Of a stretch of DNA of 52,260 nucleotides, positions 7,845 through 22,010 are shown piece after piece (position 1 is the stretch's first letter; every line of letters starts with the position of its first letter). The stretch lies in assembly GCA_012735505.1 (NCBI GenBank), contig JAAYHE010000006.1, positions 1 through 52,260 of the forward strand, in the 5' to 3' direction. This DNA is from Bacillota bacterium. Its GTDB lineage: Bacteria; Bacillota; UBA994; UBA5500. The notes under the pieces are model-generated. The model was not told the DNA's origin and searched no databases. It worked only from the letters and a program-made list of their open reading frames with translations. The position numbers and the translations under genes were made by a program.

Positions 7845-7869
7845 CTTGCACTATGCATACAGGCAGGTG

Positions 7870-8289
7870 ATGAATCTGTTTTATCTAGATCACCGCAGTC
7901 CTATTCCAATTTACGTGCAGCTACAAAACCAAGTCAAGCAGGCAATAGCAGGCGGAGTCTTGCAAGCAGGCGATCAGCTACCTTCGGTGCGAGAGCTAGC
8001 CAGGCGCTTGACTGTCAATCCCAACACGATTGCACGCGCTTACCAAGAGCTAGAGCGCGAAGGTCTGATCGAGACTAGGCGTGGCCTAGGCACCTTTGTG
8101 GCAGAAGCCCAGGCCCTTACCCAGTCAGCGCGTCGTTTAAGAATTAGCGATGCTATCGACGAGCTTTTGCGGGAGGCAATGCGCCTGGGTCTAAATCGGC
8201 AAGAGCTGGATGACATTCTTGCAGAACGTCTGGCGGCGATATTTAAGGATGGGGAAAAAAGGGGGCTAGATGAGGATGCGTGTCATTGA
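7870..8289 (+). CDS. GntR-family (YtrA subfamily) transcriptional regulator
   Basis: The 139-residue protein has a GntR winged helix at its N-terminus (IPIYVQLQNQVKQAI, then LPSVRELARRLTVNPNTI and ETRRGLGTFV) and only a short helical tail, the YtrA arrangement. These regulators repress ABC transporter operons that respond to cell-envelope stress or antibiotics, and the ATPase and permease genes follow directly. I choose ATG 7870 because the protein alignment starts naturally at NLFYLDHRSPIPIY. The Shine-Dalgarno-like AGGCAGGTG touches this ATG, and an in-frame TTG at 7846 lies just after the palindrome, so the exact start is uncertain. The gene overlaps the ATPase gene by 20 bases. Confidence 0.9.
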   Translation: MNLFYLDHRSPIPIYVQLQNQVKQAIAGGVLQAGDQLPSVRELARRLTVNPNTIARAYQELEREGLIETRRGLGTFVAEAQALTQSARRLRISDAIDELLREAMRLGLNRQELDDILAERLAAIFKDGEKRGLDEDACH

Positions 8290-9157
8290 AACCAAGGGGC
8301 TGTGTAAGTTTTACGGGCCTAAAGCTGCTGTCGTAGACCTAGATCTGCAGGTGGAGTCGGGAAGCATTTTTGGCTTTTTGGGCCCTAACGGATCAGGCAA
8401 GAGTACTACCGTTAAGATGCTGCTAGGCTTACGCAGGCCGAGCAAAGGTTCGGCACAGGTACTCGGACTTGATAGCAGCACCGCTAGCCAACTAATAGGC
8501 CGGCACATTGGCTATGTGCCAGAATTAGGGAATCTTTATCAGCACTTTACGGTGCAAGAGAGCATTGATCTAGTGAAAGGGTTGCGCCCCACTTGGGACG
8601 AAGATTTTGCCCAGTATTTGTTGAGCAAGTTTGAATTACCCTTACAACGGCGGGTGCGCCAGCTTTCTAAAGGGATGCAGCGCCAATTGGCCTTGCTCTT
8701 GGCGATGGCACCGCGGCCAGAACTGCTCATTCTCGACGAACCCTCGTCTGGGCTAGACCCTATCAAGCGGCAAGAATTCCTGCAGATTTTGGTTGACGGA
8801 GTCGCTGAAACGGGACAAACGGTATTCTTTTCTTCGCACAACATGACTGAAGTGGAACGAGTGGCCGATACGGTTGGCATCTTGCATAACGGTCGTCTGG
8901 TTGTCAGCGGTGACTTGGCGGAGCTCAAGCAGAACGTGAAGCGTATTCGAGTAGTTCTAGCTAGTCAGGAACCGCTGCAACTCAAGCAAGCAGTGCGTAA
9001 AATCGAAGGCCAAAACGGCCACTGGCTCGTTACTGTAGACCGTGATACCGACCTAGTGGTGGCCGAGCTGAGAGCGATGCAGCCCATCGTGCTAGAGACA
9101 TATGATTTGTCTTTAGAAGATATTTTTATCATCTATGCGGGAGGTGGCGAGCAGTGA
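8270..9157 (+). CDS. ABC transporter ATP-binding protein (CcmA/YtrB type)
   Basis: The 295-residue ATPase has Walker A GPNGSGKST at 38-46, signature LSKGMQRQ at 132-139 (the LSKGM variant common in this subfamily), Walker B LLILDEP at 152-158, D-loop SSGLD and switch histidine in FFSSHNM. The C-terminal 80 residues form the accessory region usual for drug or envelope-stress ABC-2 exporters. It would energise the permease encoded next. The start ATG lies inside the end of the GntR gene, and the stop overlaps the permease start in a GTGA arrangement, so the three genes are translationally coupled. Substrate is unknown. Confidence 0.93.
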   Translation: MRMRVIETKGLCKFYGPKAAVVDLDLQVESGSIFGFLGPNGSGKSTTVKMLLGLRRPSKGSAQVLGLDSSTASQLIGRHIGYVPELGNLYQHFTVQESIDLVKGLRPTWDEDFAQYLLSKFELPLQRRVRQLSKGMQRQLALLLAMAPRPELLILDEPSSGLDPIKRQEFLQILVDGVAETGQTVFFSSHNMTEVERVADTVGILHNGRLVVSGDLAELKQNVKRIRVVLASQEPLQLKQAVRKIEGQNGHWLVTVDRDTDLVVAELRAMQPIVLETYDLSLEDIFIIYAGGGEQ

Positions 9158-9918
9158 ACCGCACTTTGATTCATAAAGAGCTGAAAAGCCTGAGGTGGAA
9201 GTTGCTTGTGGCTTTCCTAGCGCTAGTGGTCGTTACTCTAGTAATGATTGTACTGCACGAGCAGCTACTAGAATTTCTACCTACAGACCAATCCGAGCTT
9301 CCTTCCTTCGTGACCTCCGAGATGCTGGAAAGTTTCGGCGACTACACCAATGCAATGTGGCTGAATCTTAATGATAAGAACCTAATACAAATCGGCTGCA
9401 TACTCGCTATCGTCCTAGGCATTGGCTTGCTAGCTCCGGAGATAGAAAGCGAGACCATTACTCTACTGCTCACCAACGGTTTAAGTCGCAAGAAGGTATT
9501 TTGGACCAAAACCATAATTGTTATAATTGCCTTAGCCTCACTGCTATTGACTGTCAGCGCGTTGGTTGTTCCGCTCAGTAGTATTTTCGGCTATACGCTG
9601 CGCCACCTGCGGTCGATTCCGACCACCCTGGTCACCGTCCTCGGCCTCAGCTTTGTGTTTGCAGTTAGTTTGCTAATTTCCTTGTTCCTTAAAGACAGAA
9701 TCTGGAGCGGCATAGCCAGCGCCTTGCTCTTTGGCCTTTGGTCTGTGCTCGGTTTTTGGAAATCAACCCGCATCTTCAGTCTCTTCTATCACATGCGGGC
9801 GGCTGACTACTTTTTTGGCGAGCGCAGTTTCCCCTGGTTAACAGCTTTGGGCTTTGCAGTTGCTACGGCTATTGTCCTTTTATTAGCAGCTAATCGCTTT
9901 GAGCAGGAAGAACTATAG
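9154..9918 (+). CDS. ABC-2 type permease
   Basis: The 254-residue protein is predominantly hydrophobic, with about six membrane segments: a first near residues 15-33, then a group from about 75 onward (IQIGCILAIVLGIGLLAP, TIIVIIALASLLLTVSAL, VLGLSFVFAVSLLISLFL, ASALLFGLWSVLGFW) and a last one near the C-terminus. A large extracytoplasmic loop lies between segments 1 and 2, as in ABC-2 exporters. The sequence ELKSLRWKLL at the N-terminus is a common start for this family. GTG start overlaps the ATPase stop by four bases. It should form an efflux pump with the preceding ATPase under control of the GntR regulator. Confidence 0.88.
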   Translation: MNRTLIHKELKSLRWKLLVAFLALVVVTLVMIVLHEQLLEFLPTDQSELPSFVTSEMLESFGDYTNAMWLNLNDKNLIQIGCILAIVLGIGLLAPEIESETITLLLTNGLSRKKVFWTKTIIVIIALASLLLTVSALVVPLSSIFGYTLRHLRSIPTTLVTVLGLSFVFAVSLLISLFLKDRIWSGIASALLFGLWSVLGFWKSTRIFSLFYHMRAADYFFGERSFPWLTALGFAVATAIVLLLAANRFEQEEL

Positions 9919-15271: not shown

Positions 15272-15380
15272 TCAAACCACACCTCCAGTCTAAAATGCCC
15301 CTTGTTCATAGGAATGCAAGTTTTGGCCAGGGTATGACCCCTAGTCTCTTGCCTGTCAATACCGACTTAGAGGCAGGATT

Positions 15381-15408
15381 TTGCAGCGCAAATGGCAAAT
15401 TATATAAA
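15381..15408 (+). promoter_or_regulatory. candidate promoter of the Shango-like operon
   Basis: TTGCAG (15381-15386), a 16-base spacer and TATAAA (15403-15408) lie 36 bases before the first gene of the operon. No other promoter is apparent in the 172-base gap. Confidence 0.5.
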
Positions 15409-15443
15409 GATACGATTATTTTCCTGCGGAGGGGGTGAGGTGA

Positions 15444-17894
15444 ATGGCGGAAAGATTGGACCTTGACGAGCAGGCAACAGAAGTGCTCCAGCAATTTACC
15501 GGCCCTGCTATCTTAGGCCTGCGGGCGCGGCGGCGAGAGCAGCGGGCTATCGGATGCGTCGAAGCCGAGCCTTGCCTGCGCCTGGGGTCAAACATACTGC
15601 CAGCATTATCTATCTCCCAGCAGTTGGCCACCAACCCCGACTTCATACGCTTGCCGCAAGGTCAGGTGCCTAGGTCAGTAATACAGGCGGCCGGCATAAC
15701 TAGTTATGGTCGCGCTAGCGATGGCACTACTTTACAACCGTTGCCTCTAGGCCCGGAAGCCGTCTTGTGGCAAGATTTCAGTAAGCTGCAAGGGCCTTGG
15801 CAGTTCACTATCCCCCTAGACATCAACCTGCCAAAGGGGGGGAGAGCACTATTAGAAAGAGCCTATAACCAGCTCGAATGGCTGCGTACTTGGGGCCTTC
15901 CTGGCGGGCTAGTGGGCACCTTGCATCAATATGGCACGCCCCTTTTGCAGTGGCTCGATAGCTATTTAAGATTGGTCGCCCAGCCTTGGGTCTTAATAGT
16001 GGGCACGACCACCGTGCTCAACTACGTCAAGAGATTAACTCAGATGCTCTTTGCAAGCAAACCCCATTTTGTTGGCCTCGATAACGAAGCTCGGCCAGGC
16101 GAGCTCAATCTAATAACTCCAGAAACTTTGGTTGCTAAGTCAGAAAGTACTTCAGCCCTTACAGGCGTACGCTGGGATATAGTCTGCCTGATTAACGTTG
16201 ACCTGCTGCTGGAATCGGGCCCGCAGGCACTCATCCCCCAGGTGCAAGCGCTACCAAAGGCTCTATTTATCGGGCTGTTTCATAACAACAAGTGGTGTAA
16301 GCGGGAAGTGATGCGCAACCAAGTTGCTAGTTTGCTAGGTATTCAACCTGCTGCTGCATCTCATCTGATTTGGCAATACTTAATACGCGACCCCCAACTA
16401 ACGCCTCGCGCTATCAGCCCGGCTGCCGCTGCCCAACTCGACACCCAGGCAGAAGCAGTTTCTTTTTCCGGGTGGGGGCGGTCGACGCCTAGGGCATCCA
16501 TCTTTACTTTGACGCCTTATACCTATGAACACCGGGCCTTTATTCGTGATGCGGCCAAGTATGTCTCGGCAGAAGCACCGCCGGCTCCACCCCAGGCCTA
16601 CTACCATAGGCGCCCGACTTTCTCTACCCTTGACAAGCGGCAGCTAGCTTGGTATCTCTATTGGCGGTCTCAGGTGCGCCAAGGGCAGTATCCTGACACC
16701 TATCTGGATTATATTACCTTGTACGCCACCGAACTGATCAACGGCTTCGGCATCCCGAGCGTAATGGCCGGCTATCGACAGCTGGAAGCTCTGTGGCTAA
16801 ACTACCGACAGCGGTTTGAGCCTTTAGATAACTGGTTGCCCGAGTGGCTATGTGATTATCTCTTGGTTAATGGTTGCCCCCTCGACCCGCTAACCCCCTT
16901 GCAACAAGCGCTAGAACTGGGCTTGCCTAGTCGATACCTGAATATTTTACTAGACAAATACCAAGAGCGAGGGTGGGAGGCAACGCCGTTCACCTTACTA
17001 GAGCAGCTCCTCGGCCTGGCTCTCTCTGACTCCACCGTCTACCAGCCCGAAGATCTGGCCGAAATTGCTGCCACCGTTCTCCGTGTGCTGGCCACCCTCG
17101 ATGACATCTGGCAAAGGCAAGACGGATGCAAGCTATTAGCCCGCTGGCGTCCACACCAAGCCCAGATTATGAAACGCAAACCCTTTATCAACGCCCTCTT
17201 TGCCCGTCCGACGCGCCTAATTTGTTTTGCTCGCTACTACCCTTATAGCGAACAACCGGGCTTTATCAGATTGCTGCTGGGTATCGTCAAGCATACTGAG
17301 AACTTGCTGCGGGCACAGCGTGGTTATCGTGGCCGGGTGCGAGGCCTTGAACTACCGCTTGAGCTCCAAAGCCTGATCGAGAAAATCTTTAACAGCTCCC
17401 GACCTAGAATTCAGGTAAGAATAGATTTAGCCGAAGTAGCGCGGCTGAAGCGCGCTTCCGACGAAGTGAGGGATTTGCTGTTAGCCGAAGCTGGGAACAC
17501 TGAGGCAGGGGAGATAGAGCAAAGGGATCAGGCCCCTGTCGCAGAGCTTGTGCCTCAACAGCAGCCCTTGCTAGCGGGCCAGCTTTTGGCGACGAGCACG
17601 AGTCCGACAGCTACCGACAGTGGAGAGCCCTGGCGGCAGCTCGTAGCCCAGTTAGGCCCACCAGAGCTTGCTGCTCTGCAGATCTTACTTAATTCGGGCA
17701 GCTGGAACGAGCTGGTGCGCTACTGCCAAGCGCAGGATCTGCTGCCAGAGCTGTTAGTCGACAATGTCAATGCTGTTGCCCTAGATATTATTGGTGACCT
17801 ATTGATCGATACTACGAGCGATGAACCCTGCCTAGTGGCAGAATATATGCCAGAGCTGGAAGCTATGCTGGCCAAGTTAGCGACAGAGAGGTGA
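15444..17894 (+). CDS. sngA: SngA-like TerB-N/TerB-C protein with a degenerate SNF2-like N-terminal domain
   Basis: First gene of a three-gene cassette matching the Shango anti-phage system. In this 816-residue protein, residues about 390-580 match TerB-N, with KRQLAWYLYWRSQVRQGQYP and YATELINGFG. Residues about 655-816 match TerB-C, from RPRIQVRIDLAEVARLKRAS to LDIIGDLLID. Residues about 128-300 follow the order of a SNF2 RecA1 domain (RTWGLPGGLVGTLHQYGTPL, WVLIVGTTTVLNYVKRL, VRWDIVCLINVD, ALFIGLFHNN), but Walker A and DEAH residues are missing. I infer a catalytically dead ATPase fold that may hold DNA or a partner. The first 120 residues are unassigned. The ribosome binding site AGGGGGTGAGGTGA is strong. 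The Shango name is from gene content, not from a search. Confidence 0.82.
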   Translation: MAERLDLDEQATEVLQQFTGPAILGLRARRREQRAIGCVEAEPCLRLGSNILPALSISQQLATNPDFIRLPQGQVPRSVIQAAGITSYGRASDGTTLQPLPLGPEAVLWQDFSKLQGPWQFTIPLDINLPKGGRALLERAYNQLEWLRTWGLPGGLVGTLHQYGTPLLQWLDSYLRLVAQPWVLIVGTTTVLNYVKRLTQMLFASKPHFVGLDNEARPGELNLITPETLVAKSESTSALTGVRWDIVCLINVDLLLESGPQALIPQVQALPKALFIGLFHNNKWCKREVMRNQVASLLGIQPAAASHLIWQYLIRDPQLTPRAISPAAAAQLDTQAEAVSFSGWGRSTPRASIFTLTPYTYEHRAFIRDAAKYVSAEAPPAPPQAYYHRRPTFSTLDKRQLAWYLYWRSQVRQGQYPDTYLDYITLYATELINGFGIPSVMAGYRQLEALWLNYRQRFEPLDNWLPEWLCDYLLVNGCPLDPLTPLQQALELGLPSRYLNILLDKYQERGWEATPFTLLEQLLGLALSDSTVYQPEDLAEIAATVLRVLATLDDIWQRQDGCKLLARWRPHQAQIMKRKPFINALFARPTRLICFARYYPYSEQPGFIRLLLGIVKHTENLLRAQRGYRGRVRGLELPLELQSLIEKIFNSSRPRIQVRIDLAEVARLKRASDEVRDLLLAEAGNTEAGEIEQRDQAPVAELVPQQQPLLAGQLLATSTSPTATDSGEPWRQLVAQLGPPELAALQILLNSGSWNELVRYCQAQDLLPELLVDNVNAVALDIIGDLLIDTTSDEPCLVAEYMPELEAMLAKLATER

Positions 17895-17900
17895 GGCAAC

Positions 17901-19202
17901 GTGTCAGTAACCATACCAAAACGAATTACTAGTGCCTTGTTGGGTTCTCTTGCGGCAGGAGTAGTGCCACGCATCGGCTTAGAGTACATAGCAGTGGGGC
18001 GAAATACAGAAATCAAAGCCCTACTACATGATCTTGAAAATGTAGCTGCTGGCGGAGCCGCTTTCCGGATTATCGTCGGGCGGTATGGCTCCGGTAAAAG
18101 TTTTCTCTTGCAGTTGTTGCGCAATCATGCCATGGACCGCGGCTTTGTTGTGGCCGATTGCGATCTTTCACCCGAACGCCGGCTGACTGGGGCTAATCGT
18201 CAAGGCGTAGCCACCTACCGCGAACTGATGAAAAACATAGCTACCAAGACTCGCCCCGATGGCGGCGCCTTGGCTGCTATTTTGGAGCGCTGGATCGCAT
18301 CCATACAGATGCAGGTAGTGCAAAGCGGCGAGTTAAAGCAAACCGACCCGGCCTTCCTCGATACAGTAGAGCAAGAGATCATGGCTGTGATCCACCAGAT
18401 GGAAGGACTGGTGCACGGCTTTGACTTTGCTTCGGTGCTAACTAGCTATTGGCGCGGGCATCGCCTCGGCGACGATGCCCTCAAGGACGCAGCTTTACGC
18501 TGGTTGCGGGGCGAGTTTACTACTAAGACCGAGGCTCGTCGGGCACTCGGAGTGAGAGTAATTATTGACGATGACTCTTGGTACGACTATATTAAGCTTA
18601 TGGCGCAACTGGTAGTCGGGATCGGCTACCAAGGTTTGATTGTCTTCTTGGATGAAATGGTAAATCTCTACAAGATCAGCCATACACAAGCGCGCCAGTC
18701 TAATTATGAAAAGTATCTAACCATGTTTAACGATACCATGCAGGGCAAAGCGAGTCATCTGGGCATCATCTCTGCCGGCACGCCCCAATTCGTCGAGGAT
18801 CCGCGGCGCGGCCTATTCAGTTATGAGGCTCTGCGTTCGCGCTTAGCTGAAAGCCGTTTTCTGAAGTCTGGTTGGCAAGATACTAGCGGTCCTATCTTGC
18901 GGCTGCAGAATTTATCTTACGAAGAACTGTTTGTGCTGTTGACGCGCCTAGTAGACGTACATGCAGCCCACTACGGCGAGGCGTTACCCCTCTGCGATGC
19001 TGATTTAACCCTATTCTTACAAGAAGCGACTAACCGCCTCGGAGCAGAGGAGCTCCTTACTCCGCGGGAGATAATTCGCGATTTTATTACGCTGCTAAAC
19101 TTAATGCGTCAGCACCCAGGGATACAGTTCGCCCAACTATTGCAAGACCTAGAATTTCACTCCGACGAAAATAAGGATGACCTAGCTGAGTTTGTGCTAT
19201 GA
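17901..19202 (+). CDS. sngB: SngB-like ATPase (DUF2791, BrxD-like)
   Basis: The 433-residue AAA-type ATPase matches the DUF2791/BrxD family: the N-terminal PRIGLEYIAVGRNTEI, Walker A GRYGSGKSFL at 60-69, CDLSPERRL near 87, Walker B GLIVFLDEMVNLYK at 245-258, and a sensor-like GIISAGTPQFVEDPRRGLFS followed by YEALRSRLAESRF. In BREX type 2 the relative BrxD is paired with the helicase BrxHI; here the partner helicase gene overlaps by four bases (ATGA). Start is GTG, six bases after the sngA stop, with GAGGTGAGG upstream. The coupling suggests the three proteins are made together and act as a defence complex. Confidence 0.88.
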   Translation: MSVTIPKRITSALLGSLAAGVVPRIGLEYIAVGRNTEIKALLHDLENVAAGGAAFRIIVGRYGSGKSFLLQLLRNHAMDRGFVVADCDLSPERRLTGANRQGVATYRELMKNIATKTRPDGGALAAILERWIASIQMQVVQSGELKQTDPAFLDTVEQEIMAVIHQMEGLVHGFDFASVLTSYWRGHRLGDDALKDAALRWLRGEFTTKTEARRALGVRVIIDDDSWYDYIKLMAQLVVGIGYQGLIVFLDEMVNLYKISHTQARQSNYEKYLTMFNDTMQGKASHLGIISAGTPQFVEDPRRGLFSYEALRSRLAESRFLKSGWQDTSGPILRLQNLSYEELFVLLTRLVDVHAAHYGEALPLCDADLTLFLQEATNRLGAEELLTPREIIRDFITLLNLMRQHPGIQFAQLLQDLEFHSDENKDDLAEFVL

Positions 19203-21337
19203 GCAAGCGTGCTTTTCAGCGGTTAGCGCCCTTTATACGGGAATATATTTTTGCCCAAGGTTGGACCGAACTGCGTGAAATTCAGGTGCAAGCCATCCAA
19301 GCTATTTTGGATACCGATGACCATCTTTTGTTGGCTAGTGGCACTGCCTCTGGCAAGACCGAGGCGGCTTTCTTGCCGATTCTAACTTTGTTAGAGCAAA
19401 CCCCGTCTACAAGCTTGGGGGTACTCTATATCGGCCCCACCAAAGCGCTGATCAATGACCAATGGCAGCGCTTGCAGTATCTCTTAGCAGCAGCCAATTT
19501 TCCCGTTTGGAGTTGGCATGGGGATGTGGCTCAGAACCGCAAAGAACAACTGTTGCGTGCCCCCCGCGGGGTATTACAAATCACGCCCGAGTCGTTAGAA
19601 AGTTTGTTGATCAACCGGAACAACTATCTGGAAGCTCTGTTTCACGATCTGCGTTTTGTCATCATCGACGAAGTGCACGTGTTTATGGGGTCCGAGCGGG
19701 GACAGCAGATTCTTTGCCAACTGGCGCGTTTGCGCCGGTATAGCCAGAGCGAACCTCGTCGGGTAGGGCTTTCTGCCACTCTTGGCGACTATGCTCTAGC
19801 CAAAAGCTGGTTGGCTGCTGGTAGTTCTCGGTCTGTGCTTGTTCCCCCCAAACCGAAAGGGGGGCAGCGCTTGCGGCTGTCGCTGGAACACTTTGTGCGG
19901 TCAATTAACAGCACCCTGGTCCCGGCGGAAGATCCCTTTTATCACTATTTGTTTGAGCAAACCCGTGGGCGCAAATGTCTTATTTTCACCAATCGACGGG
20001 CAGAAACTGAAGATATCATTGCGGCCTTGCGTCAAATAGCAGCCGCTAGCGGTTACCCAGACATCTACCATGTCCACCACGGCAGTGTTGCACCAGCGCT
20101 CCGGGAAGCGGCCGAGGCGGCTATGCGCGACCCCTATCGCCCAGCGGTAACGGCGGCCACTGTTACCCTCGAGCTCGGGATAGACCTCGGCCAGTTAGAA
20201 GGGGTGGTGCAGCTAGACGCACCCCATTCGGTGATGAGCTTTCTGCAGCGTTTGGGGCGTTCGGGACGGCGGGGAGGACCGCAAGAGATGCGCCTGGTGA
20301 CTACAGAAAGCGATACAGACAGGGGCGGCGGCTTGCCTTTGCCTTGGCAATTGTTGCAGAGCATTGCTATCTTAGAGCTATACTTGCAGAAACAATGGAT
20401 TGAGCCGGTAGAGCCGCCACGTTATCCCTTCAGCCTGCTGTATCAACAAACTCTGAGCACCCTGCTGGCTGCTGGTGAATTGCAGCCAGCTGCTCTAGCC
20501 CAGCGAGTGCTTACCCTACCTCCTTTTCAGCACATTAGCACCGATGATTATCGCCTCTTGTTGCGACACTTGCTGGCTATAGACCATTTGGAACGCATAG
20601 AAAACGGCAGCTTGATCGTCGGCTTAGCAGGAGAAAAGGTAGCCCGCAACTGGCGCTTCTTTGCTGTCTTTCAAGATAGTGATGAATACACAGTCTATGA
20701 TGCCAGCCGGGAGATTGGCACTATTAGCAGCGCTCCAGCTCCTGGAGAGCTGTTGGCCCTAGCGGGCAGCACCTGGGAAGTACAAGCGGTAGACACTAGT
20801 CGCAAGCAAGTGTTGGTCACTCCTGCCCCCGGCCGTGCTACCATAGCTTGGTCGGGCACTAGCGTGGCAATACACGACCGTATTCTGCAAGAGATGCGCC
20901 GTATTCTGGTGGCCAGTAACACCGAATATCGCTACCTGCGGCCTGGCGCTAGCCAGCGCTTGCAGCAAGCCCGGACTTGGGCTCGCGCACATCGCTTAGA
21001 CCACCACATGGTCATCCCTTGGGGCAGGCAAAACACTTTTTGTATTCTGCCGTGGCGGGGCAGTCGGGGTTTTAGGCGCTTGGAGAGAGTTTTGCGCTTC
21101 TTAGGCAGTGCTCAGCTTGGCATCACCAGCCTCACTGGTTACGCTCCTTACTATTTCATCGTACAAACAGAAATCGGTTCTGCGAATGCCTTAGAACAAG
21201 GTATAGCCGACCTCATCCAAGAGTTGGCCTCCCCCGAGCAATTGTTGGCCCCCGGGGAAGTACCACGGATGCAGAAATACGACGAATTTGTACCCGATGT
21301 CTTGTTGCGTAAGGCCTATATCTACGACCAGCTCTAG
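19199..21337 (+). CDS. sngC: SngC-like DEAD/DEAH-box helicase (BrxHI-like)
   Basis: The 712-residue superfamily 2 helicase has all core motifs: Q-like REIQVQAI near 27, motif I SGTASGKT at 47-54, motif II DEVH at 157-160, motif III SAT at 192-194, TLELGIDLG near 325, and motif VI QRLGRSGRRGG near 360. The C-terminal 300 residues resemble the Lhr/BrxHI-type accessory region. Unlike the N-terminal region of SngA, its ATPase motifs are intact, so it should be the motor of the system. ATG overlaps the sngB stop. It is the last gene of the operon; no nuclease or methylase gene accompanies it. Confidence 0.9.
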   Translation: MSKRAFQRLAPFIREYIFAQGWTELREIQVQAIQAILDTDDHLLLASGTASGKTEAAFLPILTLLEQTPSTSLGVLYIGPTKALINDQWQRLQYLLAAANFPVWSWHGDVAQNRKEQLLRAPRGVLQITPESLESLLINRNNYLEALFHDLRFVIIDEVHVFMGSERGQQILCQLARLRRYSQSEPRRVGLSATLGDYALAKSWLAAGSSRSVLVPPKPKGGQRLRLSLEHFVRSINSTLVPAEDPFYHYLFEQTRGRKCLIFTNRRAETEDIIAALRQIAAASGYPDIYHVHHGSVAPALREAAEAAMRDPYRPAVTAATVTLELGIDLGQLEGVVQLDAPHSVMSFLQRLGRSGRRGGPQEMRLVTTESDTDRGGGLPLPWQLLQSIAILELYLQKQWIEPVEPPRYPFSLLYQQTLSTLLAAGELQPAALAQRVLTLPPFQHISTDDYRLLLRHLLAIDHLERIENGSLIVGLAGEKVARNWRFFAVFQDSDEYTVYDASREIGTISSAPAPGELLALAGSTWEVQAVDTSRKQVLVTPAPGRATIAWSGTSVAIHDRILQEMRRILVASNTEYRYLRPGASQRLQQARTWARAHRLDHHMVIPWGRQNTFCILPWRGSRGFRRLERVLRFLGSAQLGITSLTGYAPYYFIVQTEIGSANALEQGIADLIQELASPEQLLAPGEVPRMQKYDEFVPDVLLRKAYIYDQL

Positions 21338-21379: not shown

Positions 21380-21385
21380 TATAAT
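21380..21385 (+). promoter_or_regulatory. -10 box (TATAAT) of the NlpC/P60 gene
   Basis: A consensus TATAAT lies about 90 bases before the chosen start. The -35 is poor (TGTAAA at 21358 with a 16-base spacer), so an activator or another sigma factor may be involved. Confidence 0.4.
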
Positions 21386-21441
21386 GGGACATGATCACTT
21401 GGTACATAGAGAGAGATCAGTCAAAGAGAGAGGAAGAGTTG

Positions 21442-21468
21442 CCCTTTCTGCTGAATCCAGAAAGGGGG
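21442..21468 (+). promoter_or_regulatory. hairpin sequestering the ribosome binding site of the NlpC/P60 gene
   Basis: CCCTTTCTG (21442-21450) pairs perfectly with CAGAAAGGG (21458-21466) across a 7-base loop. The right arm includes the first bases of the ribosome binding site AAAGGGGG, so the folded leader would hinder translation of the gene starting at 21477. Confidence 0.5.
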
Positions 21469-21476
21469 AACATTCG

Positions 21477-21968
21477 TTGTTCAAATCCAACAGAAGCCTT
21501 AAAGTATTGGCTTCCTTACTTTTAATGGCCGTTGTTATTACTTTTGCACCTATCGGCGTCTTTTCCAACGAAGCCGAAGCTGCTACTCGCTTTGCTAACC
21601 GCTATTCGGTAGTGCGGACTGCCCGGAAGTATATGGGTCGCCCCTATATTTTTGGCGCCAACGGGCCACGTAGCTTCGACTGCTCGGGCTTTACACGTTA
21701 TGTTTACCGCCTTCATGGCTACTACATTCCACGTACTGCAGCTGCCCAGTCGCGGGTTGGCAAGTTTGTGAGCTCCGGCAACTGGCGTTACGGAGACCTG
21801 ATCTTCTTCCGTAACACCTATAAGAGGGGTATTTCGCATGTGGGCATTTATGCTGGCAACAACCGCATCATCCATGCTTGGCCTCGCAGTGGCGTCACGG
21901 TGCATAACTTCCGCACTTACAGTTACCTCAGAACTAGATATGCGGGCGCTCGCCGTATTCTAAAGTAA
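21477..21968 (+). CDS. secreted NlpC/P60 peptidoglycan endopeptidase
   Basis: From a TTG start at 21477 the product has 163 residues. A signal peptide runs through SLKVLASLLLMAVVITFAP and ends near NEAEA. The NlpC/P60 domain contains the catalytic cysteine in SFDCSGFTRYVYR, the histidine in GISHVGIYAG and the third polar residue in RIIHAW. It cleaves peptide stems of peptidoglycan outside the cell. I prefer TTG because it lies eight bases after GGGGG and begins the signal peptide directly; an in-frame ATG at 21384 would add 31 polar residues and lies at the -10 box. No SH3 or LysM wall-binding domain is present. The upstream hairpin suggests translational control. Confidence 0.88.
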   Translation: MFKSNRSLKVLASLLLMAVVITFAPIGVFSNEAEAATRFANRYSVVRTARKYMGRPYIFGANGPRSFDCSGFTRYVYRLHGYYIPRTAAAQSRVGKFVSSGNWRYGDLIFFRNTYKRGISHVGIYAGNNRIIHAWPRSGVTVHNFRTYSYLRTRYAGARRILK

Positions 21969-21984
21969 CAAATTTAAAATTTGG

Positions 21985-22010
21985 CCGTTCCGCGAGGAAC
22001 GGTTTTTTTT
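21985..22010 (+). terminator. terminator after the NlpC/P60 gene
   Basis: Stem CCGTTCC/GGAACGG with loop GCGA is followed by eight T residues: a textbook intrinsic terminator. Confidence 0.95.

What the first reader, a model, noticed from the sequence alone, without database searches (positions are those of the whole stretch)
15444..21337. Complete Shango-like anti-phage operon outside an obvious mobile element
TerB-N/TerB-C protein, DUF2791 ATPase and DEAD/DEAH helicase lie in one operon with 6-base spacing and a 4-base ATGA overlap. This is the Shango composition; the ATPase and helicase are also related to BrxD and BrxHI of BREX. No integrase, transposase, other defence gene or target-site repeat is seen beside it, so the setting is unlike a typical defence island.
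Basis: partly seen in the sequence, partly recalled or inferred. Interest (0 to 1): 0.7.

Follow-up and report, generated by a model that had tools for sequence, protein, structure and literature searches.

The report
Resident Shango operon with pseudo-helicase lobe
The three genes are a genuine Shango anti-phage operon, but a long-settled chromosomal one with an extra dead Swi2/Snf2 helicase lobe on its TerB protein, and its relatives are present in every sampled species of one Paenibacillus genus, which is unusual for a phage-defence system.

Summary
In detail: sngA (15444-17894), sngB (17901-19202) and sngC (19199-21337) form one operon, and the best PADLOC matches of the three proteins are SngA, SngB and SngC (E 1.5e-65, 1.3e-190, 1.2e-234). 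No flanking target repeat was found, and no specific defence gene or integrase among the neighbours tested.
The mobile-insertion idea is not supported. All four sampled genomes of the host family carry the operon. In the two whose contigs reach far enough, it stands in the same gene order beside NlpC/P60, ROK kinase and NagA.
(1) In one GTDB genus of Paenibacillus, SngA and SngB occur in 100 of 100 species genomes, nearly always as one copy; a BREX marker gives 6 clear hits in the same genomes. In another genus SngC is in 46 of 61, so the operon is dispensable. In enterobacteria Shango rides on hundreds of conjugative plasmids.
(2) SngA residues ~20-320, outside the SngA profile, are predicted to be a Swi2/Snf2-type RecA lobe without Walker-A lysine or DExx box, in all nine long SngAs examined.
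Likely mechanism (inferred): SngB loads or drives SngC helicase; SngA recognises or scaffolds.

The parts
15444..17894 (+). sngA: TerB_N/TerB_C protein, 816 aa, long form
   Evidence: PADLOC SngA 1.5e-65 over residues 318-809; Pfam TerB_N 357-553 and TerB_C 655-806; AlphaFold2 model mean pLDDT 83.8
15501..16404 (+). N-terminal extension of SngA (about residues 20-320): small beta module plus a degenerate Swi2/Snf2-type RecA-like lobe without Walker A lysine or DExx box
   Evidence: Fold search: 42 PDB matches at E<=0.001, mostly Swi2/Snf2 and other SF2 helicases; second model from L012 likewise; motif check in 9 long SngAs; collinear but weak profile alignment to SNF2, P 0.005, probability 7%
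17901..19202 (+). sngB: ORC/Cdc6-like AAA+ ATPase of the BrxC/BrxD family, 433 aa, Walker A GRYGSGKS at 60 and Walker B IVFLDE at 247
   Evidence: PADLOC SngB 1.3e-190, BrxD 3.7e-54; Pfam BrxC_BrxD 1.3e-168; motifs
19199..21337 (+). sngC: SF2 DEVH-box helicase with Lhr-type winged helix, 712 aa; relative of BrxHI
   Evidence: PADLOC SngC 1.2e-234, BrxHI 2.7e-128; DEAD, Helicase_C and WH_Lhr; motifs II, III, V and VI intact, motif I ASGTASGKTEAA read in the ORF
15272..15443 (.). divergent intergenic region between ddh (minus strand) and sngA; likely holds the operon promoter and the ribosome-binding site of sngA
   Evidence: sequence; no + strand promoter-like site scored there
21384..21968 (+). 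NlpC/P60 gene 46 nt downstream, conserved neighbour in the family; a terminator-like hairpin lies after it (21983-22004), so it may be co-transcribed. Not claimed as part of Shango
   Evidence: Pfam NLPC_P60 2e-26; same order in G001 and G002; terminator scan

Best explanation
This is a Shango-family operon that has become, or always was, a settled chromosomal gene set in this lineage, in a variant with a long SngA. Shown: operon structure, family membership by profile, conserved position in the family, intact ATPase and helicase motifs, and strong purifying selection in relatives. Inferred: SngB, an ORC/Cdc6-like AAA+ ATPase, loads or drives the SngC helicase on DNA, as has been proposed for BrxD and BrxHI; SngA acts as the recognition and scaffold subunit through TerB_N/TerB_C and, in the long form, a catalytically dead Swi2/Snf2 lobe that would bind double-stranded DNA without hydrolysing ATP. 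The likely outcome is interference with replication of invading DNA (phage or plasmid), since no nuclease or methylase is encoded in the operon.
For: Profiles. Conserved B/C coupling in 76 of 80 loci. Same neighbourhood in two genera of the family with all 4 sampled genomes positive. dN/dS medians 0.20, 0.032 and 0.033 for sngA, sngB and sngC in 16 Paenibacillus pairs. SngC tree recovers 12 of 16 strong rpoB splits with 1 strong conflict; SngB 9 of 16 with 5 conflicts; Mantel r 0.58 for both. SngA structure and fold matches. Anti-phage activity of the P. aeruginosa system (PMC10250203). BrxD as ORC-Cdc6 ATPase and possible loader of BrxHI (PMC12839542).
Against: No experiment on this lineage; Shango mechanism is not established in the papers I could read. 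The profile-profile support for SNF2 ancestry is weak (probability 7%), so it rests on the structure model. The operon is single-copy and fixed in one genus, which is unusual for defence. The host family is represented by four genomes only, and two of them (G002, G003) hold the operon on short contigs.
Confidence: 0.6

Rival explanations
1. Genome-maintenance machine: in Paenibacillus and the window's family the operon mainly serves the cell's own DNA (replication-fork repair, chromosome or plasmid housekeeping), and mobile Shango is a recruited copy used in defence.
For: SngA and SngB in 100 of 100 genomes of one genus; very low dN/dS of sngB and sngC; SngC's nearest NCBIfam relative is the ligase-associated DNA-damage DEXH helicase, below its cut-off; no defence neighbours.
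Against: Absent from about half of the same bacterial family and from a quarter of a neighbouring genus, with broken copies in some species, so not essential; absent from the other sampled families of the window's class; PADLOC profiles match strongly.
Confidence: 0.25
2. Recently acquired mobile defence operon inserted between ddh and NlpC/P60.
For: Shango is mobile elsewhere: 680 plasmid records, 540 conjugative; complete operons confirmed on a Klebsiella and a Salmonella plasmid; patchy in the phylum (20 of 356 good genomes).
Against: Same neighbours in another genus at 45-86% protein identity; no flanking repeats, integrase or transposase found; GC of the operon close to the window's.
Confidence: 0.05
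3. Remnant of a type 2 BREX (Pgl) system reduced to BrxD and BrxHI.
For: SngB matches BrxD (3.7e-54) and SngC matches BrxHI (2.7e-128).
Against: SngB scores 187.8 bits against the BrxD cut-off of 350; SngB and SngC profiles score far better; no PglX, PglZ or PglW match in the neighbouring proteins tested; TerB protein is not a BREX component.
Confidence: 0.03

Closest known systems
Shango (SngABC; P. aeruginosa PA14 and E. coli systems)
   Same: Three genes, TerB protein, ATPase, DEAD/DEAH helicase; all three PADLOC profiles are the best hits.
   Different: SngA carries an additional ~300-residue dead Swi2/Snf2 lobe; chromosomal, vertically kept, not in a defence hotspot as in P. aeruginosa cDHS1.
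BrxD-BrxHI pair of type 2 BREX
   Same: ORC/Cdc6-type ATPase next to an Lhr/Ski2-like SF2 helicase.
   Different: Below the BrxD equivalog cut-off; no methylase, PglZ or PglW nearby; TerB partner instead.
Swi2/Snf2 ATPases (Sulfolobus SWI2/SNF2 core 1z63, Chd1, ZorD of Zorya)
   Same: Predicted fold of SngA residues ~130-300.
   Different: Only the first RecA-like lobe is recognised; Walker A lysine and DExx box lost; fused to TerB domains.
Shango operons on Klebsiella IncFIB/IncFII and Salmonella Infantis plasmids
   Same: Same gene order; SngB 42.6-43.8% identical.
   Different: On conjugative plasmids; SngA 769 aa without the Snf2-like lobe.

Membership tests
Shango | TerB-domain protein, BrxC/D-type ATPase and DEAD/DEAH helicase in one operon | tested here: met
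Shango | Best match to SngA, SngB and SngC profiles over nearly full length | tested here: met
   SngB 4-437/439, SngC 1-707/720, SngA 65-527/528; SngA has an extra N-terminal domain outside the profile
Shango | Anti-phage activity | not testable with these tools
   shown for P. aeruginosa PA14 in PMC10250203, not for this lineage
Shango | Usual setting in defence hotspots or mobile elements (typical, not strictly defining) | tested here: not met
   conserved chromosomal neighbourhood, no specific defence gene among ten neighbours
BREX type 2 | BrxD equivalog score above curated cut-off | tested here: not met
   187.8 bits against 350
BREX type 2 | PglX, PglZ, BrxC and PglW in the locus | tested here: not met
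   no such match in ten neighbouring proteins; the rest of the genome was not searched
Active Swi2/Snf2 helicase (SngA N-terminus) | Walker A GKT and DExx motifs | tested here: not met
   absent in all 9 long SngAs
Swi2/Snf2 fold (SngA N-terminus) | RecA-like lobe of Swi2/Snf2 type | tested here: met
   predicted structure and PDB fold search; profile alignment weak

The most novel reading that the evidence does not exclude
Shango machinery is a fixed, vertically inherited chromosomal system in one genus of Paenibacillus and in the window's family, so that one and the same machine serves either as innate, species-wide immunity or as genome maintenance. The long SngA form adds a dead Swi2/Snf2 lobe as a DNA reader, a component not described for Shango in the papers I could read.
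Probability: 0.3. Interest if true: 0.72.

Novelty: new variant of a known kind. Interest (0 to 1): 0.5.

Why it matters
Defence systems are usually scattered by horizontal transfer and present in a minority of related genomes. A Shango operon found in every sampled species of a genus, under strong purifying selection in its ATPase and helicase, offers a natural case to ask whether Shango is defence only or also DNA maintenance. The dead Swi2/Snf2 lobe suggests that SngA contacts DNA and gives a testable handle on a mechanism that is not established in the papers I could read.

Tried and rejected
Sequence search of the SngA N-terminus against Pfam and PDB sequences found nothing; only structure prediction resolved it. 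Recent insertion was rejected by synteny. BREX remnant was rejected by cut-offs. Phage-borne origin: no match in 50,697 phage records. First rpoB tree used truncated fragments and was replaced by full-length rpoB. The model of the extreme N-terminus of the 1233-aa SngA (L012) is low in confidence (pLDDT 66.9), so its first 300 residues are left uninterpreted. Terminator and promoter scans gave no more than chance. Papers joining Shango with Paenibacillus: none held. In Paenibacillus the genes flanking the operon are conserved only within clades, so genus-wide position conservation is not claimed.

Full report
Observation. The three ORFs are present as described: 15444-17894 (816 aa), 17901-19202 (433 aa) and 19199-21337 (712 aa), all on the plus strand. 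Spacing is 6 nt between the first two and a 4-nt overlap between the last two. Across 80 related loci the second junction is a 4-nt overlap in 76, so the coupling is a conserved property. Pfam finds TerB_N and TerB_C, BrxC_BrxD, and DEAD, Helicase_C and WH_Lhr. PADLOC gives SngA 1.5e-65, SngB 1.3e-190 and SngC 1.2e-234 as best matches, with BrxD and BrxHI as second-best. The BrxD equivalog model of NCBIfam is matched well below its cut-off (187.8 of 350 bits). The operon is Shango by profile, not BREX.

Setting. There is no tRNA in the window, no convincing flanking repeat, and no composition break (GC 0.51-0.57 across the operon against about 0.50-0.54 in most of the window). Of ten neighbouring proteins scanned against PADLOC, only a GntR-type regulator and an ABC ATPase matched, by generic domains. 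The window also holds mutS- and mutL-like ORFs at 43-48 kb, recognised by eye from the ORF list, so this is ordinary chromosome. A terminator-like hairpin follows the NlpC/P60 gene (21983-22004) and none was scored between sngC and it; the scan as a whole was not above chance.

Not a recent insertion. The operon is present in all four sampled genomes of the same family (two genera) and in none of the eleven sampled genomes of the other two families in the class, where only weak ATPase hits appear. In G001, a different genus, the order ddh, sngABC, NlpC/P60, ROK kinase, NagA, CutC and onwards is the same, with protein identities of about 45-77%; two FtsX-type permease genes lie between ddh and sngA there. 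G002 shows sngABC, NlpC/P60, ROK, NagA in the same order up to the contig end; its sngC and part of sngB are interrupted by masked sequence. The G003 contig holds only sngABC, with sngC cut off.

Distribution. In the GTDB genus of G035, whose relatives in a named collection are Paenibacillus, SngB and SngA are found in 100 of 100 genomes, 96 of 96 of high quality, nearly always one copy; a few copies are split by stops, frameshifts or contig ends. The same genomes give 12 matches over the PglZ cut-off, of which only six are strong. In the whole bacterial family SngB is found in 92 of 193 good genomes and 10 of 19 genera, two of these by weak hits only. In a neighbouring genus SngC is in 46 of 61, with at least one broken copy. 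In the window's phylum the rate is 20 of 356 good genomes. So the operon is core in one genus, common in some and absent in others; it is not essential. By contrast 680 plasmid records carry an SngB relative, 540 of them typed as conjugative, mostly Klebsiella (449) and Salmonella (144); a complete operon was confirmed on one Klebsiella and one Salmonella Infantis plasmid. No phage record matches.

Inheritance and selection. For 27 genomes of the Paenibacillus family, SngB and SngC distances correlate with rpoB distances (Mantel r 0.58 each, none of 2000 permutations as high). SngC recovers 12 of 16 well-supported rpoB splits with one strong conflict; SngB recovers 9 with five conflicts. This is mostly vertical descent with some exchange. 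Median dN/dS in 16 close pairs is 0.20 for sngA, 0.032 for sngB and 0.033 for sngC: the ATPase and helicase are tightly constrained, the TerB protein evolves about six times faster relative to dS.

The extra domain of SngA. The SngA profile covers residues 318-809 only. The first ~320 residues match no Pfam family and no PDB sequence. The AlphaFold2 model of SngA has mean pLDDT 83.8, above 90 through most of residues 20-300, with alternating strands and helices of a RecA-like lobe. The PDB fold search gives 42 matches at E<=0.001, led by Chd1, the Sulfolobus SWI2/SNF2 core, ZorD of Zorya and XPB. An independent model of the longer SngA of L012 gives the same group at E down to 4.8e-07. A profile alignment to SNF2 helicases is collinear across the Walker A and DExx regions but weak (P 0.005, probability 7%). 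In all nine long SngAs the Walker A lysine and the DExx box are missing. Long SngAs occur in the window's family, Desulfosporosinus L012, L031, one Paenibacillus (L069), G623, G247 and a P. peoriae plasmid; most Shango SngAs lack the domain.

Mechanism. SngB and SngC carry intact motifs (for Walker A and B of SngB and motifs II, III, V and VI of SngC; motif I of SngC read). For the homologous BrxD-BrxHI pair, an ORC/Cdc6 ATPase loading an Lhr-like helicase has been proposed (PMC12839542). I infer the same here, with SngA as recognition or scaffold subunit and the dead Snf2-like lobe as a DNA-contacting part. Shango protects P. aeruginosa against several phages (PMC10250203). Whether this lineage uses it for defence, for its own DNA, or both is open.

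Limits. One genome per species was searched, so strain-level fixation is untested. The window's family has only four genomes, two of them with the operon on short contigs. Genome searches were exhausted before an empty site could be sought in the sister families. Papers outside the open library were not seen.

Noticed in passing
plasmid loci L209 (Klebsiella pneumoniae pKpnB1_2) and L210 (Salmonella Infantis pN17S1105): Complete Shango operons on conjugative plasmids; SngB relatives on 449 Klebsiella and 144 Salmonella plasmid records.
   Followed up: partly
L014:12791-16870: In an Anaerolineae Shango locus a 1359-aa protein resembling a restriction-modification methylase/nuclease lies between sngB and sngC, a defence-like setting (assignment by eye, not searched).
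   Followed up: no
L211 (Paenibacillus peoriae plasmid): A plasmid Shango with long SngA (1052 aa) and a cytosine methylase nearby.
   Followed up: partly
L062 and L078: Two Paenibacillus loci have sngB and sngC but no recognisable sngA upstream; sngB is preceded by a LacI-like regulator on the other strand.
   Followed up: no
window 7846-9918: GntR-type regulator, ABC ATPase and permease in tight order, resembling YtrA-type cassettes.
   Followed up: no
L108:11909-14837: In G001 two FtsX-permease genes sit between ddh and sngA, absent from the window.
   Followed up: no
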